Source: Cricetomys ansorgei
Lineage: Eukaryota > Chordata > Mammalia > Rodentia > Nesomyidae
DNA: 64,000 nt
Direction: 5' to 3'
NCBI GenBank assembly: GCA_026225945.1
Contig: JAMJFZ010003746.1
Span: 5,878,501 to 5,942,500 of the forward strand
Positions 44,060-45,027 of this stretch are shown one piece after another. The position numbers were made by a program, and so were the translations under genes. The notes under the pieces were generated by a model. The model did no database searches and was not told the origin of the DNA. It worked only from the letters and a program-made list of their open reading frames with translations. How positions within the stretch are numbered: position 1 is the stretch's first letter; each line of letters begins with the position of its first letter.

Positions 44060-44897
44060 ATTCTGTCTGCGAAGAAGACATGATCATGATCTGTACCGAC
44101 AGAATATTGTGCAATAAATAGAAAGTCTTGAGACAGGAAAGTGTGAAACTGAATTTTCAAAGAATAATTTTACCTTGTACTCTGGTTCTGCCCGAGCAGT
44201 AGTAGACAGATACAAATGCAGGTGAGCTCTAGTTTAAGAGAAGAGAACATGGGAGTCCAAGGAAGAAGAGGCTAGACCACAGTCTGTCTGGAGCTGAAGT
44301 TTGGCTGGCCTTTCCCTAAGGAGATGCGGTGAAGAGCCGCGCCATTCTCCTGAGCAGCAGTACGTTTCAAGACCCAGAGATGCTTCTTCCTCATTGTTGG
44401 AAGGAGATAGCTAGACTGCCTGCTCTATGCCTTAGCAGCTTAAGGAGATAAGCTAGACTCCAGGATGTAGAAACAATCTCATCTGATGTATCTTTGGGTA
44501 TCCATCTCCTTTGCTGGATTGCATACTTGTTCCACGTTCCTGTACTTCCTCACCAATTCTCACAAGCAGGACAGACTGATGTCAAAGAGAGAGAGTCCCT
44601 TTCCTCTTTGCCGCAGTGTTGTTGAGTGAACCGCTTCGCAAGTTCTGAGAAAGAGGACTTGCAGGTTATGGTGAGGACCTCAGTCAGCACCATGGATGTT
44701 TAACAATGGGAACAACTCACTTTTACCTTCAAAGTAACACATGCATATGTGGTGGTTGTATTGATGATACATAACGGACATCATTCTCATGTGTGGATTT
44801 TTGGGTGTTGTCACACTCTTGTTCCTCTTGGCACATTCAAACCATGTCTCCTGTGTCCATTAGCATTTAGTCCAAAGAACTTATTTCTGGCATTACA

Positions 44898-45027
44898 TCA
44901 CAACATCCAAAACATATTGAAGAAGCAGGGTATATCATTCCAATTCTTTCTGGGATTTGAAGAGTCTCTTATGGTGGCACAGTCCTCAACCAAAACTATA
45001 TTATTGGGCTCCCCGGCATCCCAGAAG
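44898..45027 (-). CDS. Clec4e: Clec4e exon 6 (CTLD part 3, frameshifted end)
   Basis: 130 coding nt to the premature TGA at 44900-44898. The region down to the old stop at 44867 is 161 nt, against 157 nt expected from the mouse protein as I recall it, so the net change is +4. EPNN, the EDC cysteine and the WNDIPC cysteine are kept. The final WICE cysteine is lost. Confidence 0.9.

What the first reader, a model, noticed from the sequence alone, without database searches (positions are those of the whole stretch)
44867..44909. Clec4e (Mincle) carries a 4-base insertion that deletes the last lectin cysteine
All six exons, splice sites and phases are intact. After the W codon in the last exon, however, the frame runs into TGA two codons later. 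The old ending is still readable in another frame down to a TAA at 44867. The exon from 45027 to that TAA is 161 nt, against 157 expected. The lost cysteine closes the main CTLD disulfide, so the receptor should misfold or lose ligand binding. This would be a recent loss, or a polymorphism, of a key mycobacterial glycolipid sensor.
Basis: partly seen in the sequence, partly recalled or inferred. Interest (0 to 1): 0.8.

Follow-up and report, generated by a model that had tools for sequence, protein, structure and literature searches.

The report
Rodent Mincle gene with frameshifted end
In this rodent genome the gene for Mincle, an immune sensor of mycobacterial fats, looks intact except for a small insertion near its very end that cuts off the last cysteine of its binding domain, so the receptor probably does not work in the animal sequenced, if the assembly is right.

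Summary
Clec4e lies on the minus strand (50505-44867) with six exons and GT-AG introns in phase. The last exon reads ...CFFNMFWML then TGA at 44900-44898 (206 aa), while the normal ending stays readable out of frame to TAA at 44869-44867. Of 120 listed relatives, 115 have the last CTLD cysteine; the other 5 are models without that part. Seven of the usual eight CRD cysteines remain. Refinements: the cysteine codon is not deleted but out of frame, and the excess of 4 aligns best as one base before it plus a separate codon after it (five of five relatives). So the frame loss may rest on one base, which leaves room for an assembly error or rare allele. No other lesion in the exons and no faster protein change was found: the loss is young, or not fixed. 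The window is a muroid rodent outside the sampled Muridae and Cricetidae, perhaps Nesomyidae or Calomyscidae; species unproved. Reads, other individuals and RNA could not be checked. Best reading: a recent or polymorphic loss of function.

The parts
50469..50505 (-). Clec4e exon 1 (coding part), MNSTKSSALHPT
49666..49761 (-). Clec4e exon 2, transmembrane segment with the arginine of ITRC
47757..47846 (-). Clec4e exon 3, neck
46711..46862 (-). Clec4e exon 4, start of the C-type lectin domain
45986..46101 (-). Clec4e exon 5, middle of the C-type lectin domain
44867..45027 (-). Clec4e exon 6 to the former stop; 161 nt; carries EPN and WND motifs and the frameshift
44903..44903 (-). extra base in the frame-aware alignment (exact place ambiguous by a base or two)
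   Evidence: same result against five relatives
44898..44900 (-). premature TGA in the reading frame
44900..44902 (-). TGT codon of the last CTLD cysteine, now out of frame
44894..44896 (-). extra codon in the old frame (E aligned to D-V; exact place ambiguous)
44867..44869 (-). TAA at the former end, out of frame
2237..11485 (+). neighbouring Clec4d (MCL), exons 2-6 open; exon 1 not sought

Best explanation
This is the one Clec4e (Mincle) orthologue seen in the window, and the sequenced haplotype carries a young loss-of-function frameshift in its last exon. Shown: the frame ends at TGA two codons after the W at the end of the domain, before the last CTLD cysteine, so the encoded protein of 206 aa keeps the transmembrane arginine and the EPN and WND motifs but has seven instead of eight CRD cysteines and lacks the usual tail. 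Inferred: since the stop lies in the last exon, the mRNA should escape nonsense-mediated decay; the protein would be made with an unpaired cysteine, fold poorly, and be held in the endoplasmic reticulum or reach the surface without ligand binding. Inferred too: the change is recent or still polymorphic, and sensing of cord factor would fall to the neighbouring MCL (Clec4d), whose exons 2-6 look intact.
For: Exons and splice sites in order, 652 nt to the old stop. Frame-aware alignment puts the same +1 and +3 against each of five relatives. The last Cys is present in 115 of 120 listed relatives and invariant, with the following Glu, in 44 of 44 aligned. Pfam Lectin_C is matched to position 98 of 107 only, against 107 in two relatives and 106 in the window's Clec4d. 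The CRD's eight cysteines form four intrachain disulfides (PMC11632378, passages). The human Dectin-1 truncation Y238X loses function (PMC4326652, passages). The window differs at 3 of 101 columns invariant in ten other rodents, two of the three at the broken end; the same count for each of the ten, left out in turn, is 1 to 8.
Against: No reads, second haplotype, other individual or RNA was seen; the window's own genome could not be searched. The frame loss may rest on one base, a common kind of assembly error and of rare variant (general knowledge). The rest of the gene shows no decay, which would also be expected if the gene works in the population. The structure model that might show the effect is poor.
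Confidence: 0.62

Rival explanations
1. Assembly or sequencing error of one base; the extra codon is a real, tolerated difference of this lineage and the receptor is normal.
For: Frame-aware alignment needs just one frame-breaking base, beside a separate in-frame codon; no other lesion in six exons; protein divergence is not raised.
Against: The site is no long homopolymer or tandem repeat (none at score 30 in 44500-45400). Exons 1-5 of Clec4e, Clec4d exons 2-6 and the Clec4a-like last exon at 20.3 kb show no frameshift. The two changes lie within ten bases of each other, as a real complex indel could give.
Confidence: 0.2
2. A real allele that segregates in the species beside a working one, like the human Dectin-1 stop variant.
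For: Same signs as for a young loss: one lesion site, no decay elsewhere. A CTLD-receptor truncation is known as a human polymorphism (PMC4326652, passages).
Against: Nothing seen speaks against it; it is a version of the best explanation that differs in frequency only, so its odds overlap with those above.
Confidence: 0.35
3. The ending is restored in the mRNA or in translation: another last exon, readthrough, or a +1 frameshift at the stop.
For: The old ending is preserved out of frame; a +1 shift at the TGA would lead into it. Stop-linked +1 shifts are known in other genes (recalled).
Against: By reading the codons, a +1 shift at the TGA restores the tail but with Leu where Cys belongs; readthrough gives another tail, which does begin with a Cys but two places too late. 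No other ending of Clec4e type was found in the window; the downstream minus-strand CTLD exons seen are Clec4a-like, and the nearer has a stop after its first full codon.
Confidence: 0.04
4. This copy is a broken duplicate and an intact Clec4e lies elsewhere in the genome.
For: The Clec4 cluster does duplicate: Clec4a-like exons, some multiplied, lie between Clec4d and this gene.
Against: It sits between Clec4d and vomeronasal-receptor-like stretches, as recalled for mouse; no second copy in 64 kb. The rest of the genome could not be searched.
Confidence: 0.06

Closest known systems
Clec4e / Mincle of muroid rodents (Mus pahari P0002, Peromyscus leucopus P0003, Nannospalax P0007)
   Same: Closest by sequence: 84, 82 and 79% identity over the whole query; EPN, WND and the arginine of ITRC kept.
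   Different: They end W-I-C-E-M-P-E...; the window ends W-M-L-stop and lacks the last cysteine.
Human Dectin-1 (CLEC7A) Y238X
   Same: Premature stop in a single-CTLD receptor of the innate immune system; truncated protein with loss of function (PMC4326652, passages). That the stop lies near the very end is recalled; a passage of PMC9788829 calls the product one that lacks the CRD.
   Different: Another gene; known as a human polymorphism; here a frameshift in a rodent with unknown frequency.
Rat Clec4b nonsense SNP
   Same: Loss-of-function change in a related C-type lectin receptor gene (PMC7297379, title and start of abstract in the search listing).
   Different: Another gene and a single-base nonsense change, tied to arthritis in rat models.

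Membership tests
Clec4e (Mincle) orthologue | Highest similarity to Clec4e over the whole length | tested here: met
   Of the ten best hits seven are named, all as Clec4e, and three are unnamed; the four best solved structures are Mincle
Clec4e (Mincle) orthologue | Six exons with GT-AG introns in phase, near Clec4d | tested here: met
   the exon number of the mouse gene is recalled
Clec4e (Mincle) orthologue | Ca2+/sugar motifs EPN and WND and an arginine in the membrane segment | tested here: met
   EPN at 170, WND at 193; ITRC in the spliced protein
Working Mincle lectin domain | Eight CRD cysteines in four disulfides | tested here: not met
   Seven remain (69, 80, 81, 92, 109, 180, 198); eight per PMC11632378 (passages)
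Working Mincle lectin domain | Complete Lectin_C profile | tested here: not met
   2-98 of 107, against 2-107 in P0001 and P0002
Working Mincle lectin domain | Surface expression, FcR-gamma pairing, binding of trehalose dimycolate | not testable with these tools
   needs cells
Fixed unitary pseudogene | Disabling change against relatives | tested here: met
Fixed unitary pseudogene | Further decay (other lesions, faster protein change) | tested here: not met
   no second lesion in the exons; in 12 relative-rate comparisons the window's Clec4e had fewer changes in 10, as many in 1, more in 1
Fixed unitary pseudogene | Homozygous in the species, no intact copy elsewhere | not testable with these tools

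The most novel reading that the evidence does not exclude
A whole muroid lineage (Nesomyidae-like) has lost Mincle as a lectin while keeping an expressed, truncated, membrane-bound protein that still pairs with FcR-gamma or MCL and damps or re-routes signalling, so that mycobacterial cord factor is sensed by MCL alone.
Probability: 0.08. Interest if true: 0.75.

Novelty: new member of a known kind. Interest (0 to 1): 0.36.

Why it matters
If real and common, it would be a natural Mincle knockout in a rodent, useful for asking how far MCL and other receptors cover for it in mycobacterial and fungal infection. If the animal were a giant pouched rat (not shown), it would be a species that is trained to detect tuberculosis by smell (PMC7117715, passages). 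If it is one wrong base, it is a caution for the annotation of immune genes.

Tried and rejected
Rejected: loss of a whole exon or splice site (all present). Rejected: a chance match of the out-of-frame tail (0 of 200000 random 27-mers). Rejected: slippage in a tandem array (none). Set low: splice, readthrough or frameshift rescue (see rivals).

Led nowhere: seven tries of the same own-genome search did not complete. Species naming through Clec4d gave no close hit (best 74%, Mus musculus). The AlphaFold model of the Mus pahari protein is poor (mean pLDDT 55.9); it has a strand at 204-208, which holds the lost cysteine, in a block of mean pLDDT 74, but little weight can be put on it. No dN/dS was possible, since only proteins of relatives were on hand.

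Papers: the searches listed 20 of 79, 13 entries for 14 papers, 8 of 13 and 8 of 8 papers; titles and abstract starts reported no such loss. Passages of PMC11929736 and PMC10329266 had none either; the papers were not read whole. One search gave nothing that I used.

Full report
What is there. Probing the 64 kb with C-type lectin proteins shows Clec4e on the minus strand with six exons. The five introns are GT-AG and the phases fit. The spliced reading frame runs MNSTKSSALHPT... to ...WNDIPCFFNMFWML and stops at TGA 44900-44898, 206 residues. To the TAA at 44869-44867 the exons add up to 652 nt, one more than a multiple of three, and the last exon is 161 nt. In another frame the old ending is still plain: C-D-V-M-P-E-I-S-S-L-D-stop.

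How it is broken. A frame-aware alignment of the unchanged exon 6 against five relatives (Mus pahari, Nannospalax, Jaculus, ground squirrel, unnamed P0001) gave the same answer in five of five: one extra base before the cysteine codon and one extra codon just after the codon that follows it. So the cysteine codon is still in the DNA but out of frame. The scoring charged one block of four and a split 1 + 3 alike and preferred the split; it gave no bonus for a single event, so one complex event that made both changes cannot be excluded. No tandem array lies there. The split matters: the extra codon lies after the cysteine, in a tail whose sequence varies among relatives, and may be tolerated, so the loss may hang on one base.

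What it does to the protein. Among the 120 relatives listed of 230 found, 115 carry the motif with the last cysteine; the 5 that do not are partial or leave the usual ending before it. In an alignment of 44 chosen of the 120 this cysteine (205 in Mus pahari) and the next Glu are invariant. Mincle's CRD has eight cysteines in four intrachain disulfides (PMC11632378, passages); the window has seven, so at least one stays unpaired within the chain. That its partner is the cysteine of the first helix (109 here) is recalled. Pfam Lectin_C matches 2-98 of 107 positions against 2-107 in two relatives. The EPN and WND motifs and the membrane arginine are kept. The stop lies in the last exon, so decay of the mRNA is not expected (established knowledge). 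Misfolding is inferred; a precedent is human Dectin-1 Y238X, a truncated protein with loss of function (PMC4326652, passages).

How old. No other lesion is seen in six exons. In 12 relative-rate comparisons (six rodents, two outgroups) the window's Clec4e had fewer changes than the other in 10, as many in 1, more in 1 (against Meriones, whose model lacks most of the last exon). One of the 12 passed 3.84 by chi-square, and there the window was the slower. As a control, the same 12 comparisons of Clec4d gave fewer changes for the window in 10 and more in 2, two of the 12 passing 3.84 with the window slower; so a low count is usual for this lineage and is no special sign of constraint on Clec4e. 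What can be said is that Clec4e is not accelerated. At 101 columns invariant in ten other rodents the window differs at 3, two of them at the broken end; each of the ten, left out in turn, differs at 1 to 8. This fits a young fixed loss, a segregating allele, or an error alike.

Whose genome. Clec4e is 84% identical to Mus pahari, 82% to Peromyscus leucopus and 79% to Nannospalax; Clec4d over its full length is at most 74% identical. In the tree of both proteins the sampled Muridae (support 90) and Cricetidae (support 100) each hold together without the window; the window is sister to both together (support 65) and parted from Nannospalax and the outgroups (support 94). The single-gene trees are weaker: Clec4e alone puts it in the same place (78) but does not keep Muridae together, and Clec4d alone leans to Muridae as its sister (46). 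The place fits Nesomyidae or Calomyscidae (recalled; PMC7117715, passages, puts Cricetomys in Nesomyidae). No species is proved.

Verdict. The frameshift is in this sequence and would very likely disable the lectin domain as encoded. I give about 0.62 to a true loss-of-function haplotype in the animal, part of which may be polymorphic (the rival odds overlap with this), and about 0.2 to an assembly error. Reads decide. I saw no report of it in the listings, which show parts of one library.

Noticed in passing
20290-28412, minus strand: Clec4a-like (DCIR/DCAR type) exons lie between Clec4d and Clec4e: CTLD exons near 23650-23507, 22140-22027 and 20433-20290, and three stalk-like stretches at 28412-28293, 26579-26478 and 25864-25757, as if the stalk exon had been multiplied. 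In mouse Clec4d and Clec4e are neighbours (recalled).
   Followed up: partly
36522-36385, minus strand: A Clec4a-like last exon with a stop at the conserved W position (F-stop-H), otherwise open to its end; no companion CTLD exons matched near it: probably a remnant of another copy.
   Followed up: partly
57554-60732, plus strand: Two open stretches match the Pfam receptor-family ligand-binding region (ANF_receptor; E 1.7e-10 and 2.8e-17): probably exons of a vomeronasal type-2 receptor gene.
   Followed up: partly
2237-11485, plus strand: Clec4d (MCL), the partner gene of Mincle, has open exons 2-6 and its last cysteine, ending ...RICKLPGATFA.
   Followed up: partly
P0074 (Apodemus speciosus), P0108 (Arvicola amphibius isoform X2): Public Clec4e models that leave the usual frame at the last exon (...TESLRTSGMLGSPTI...TESLRQLLGCWGA), so annotated endings of this gene need care.
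   Followed up: no
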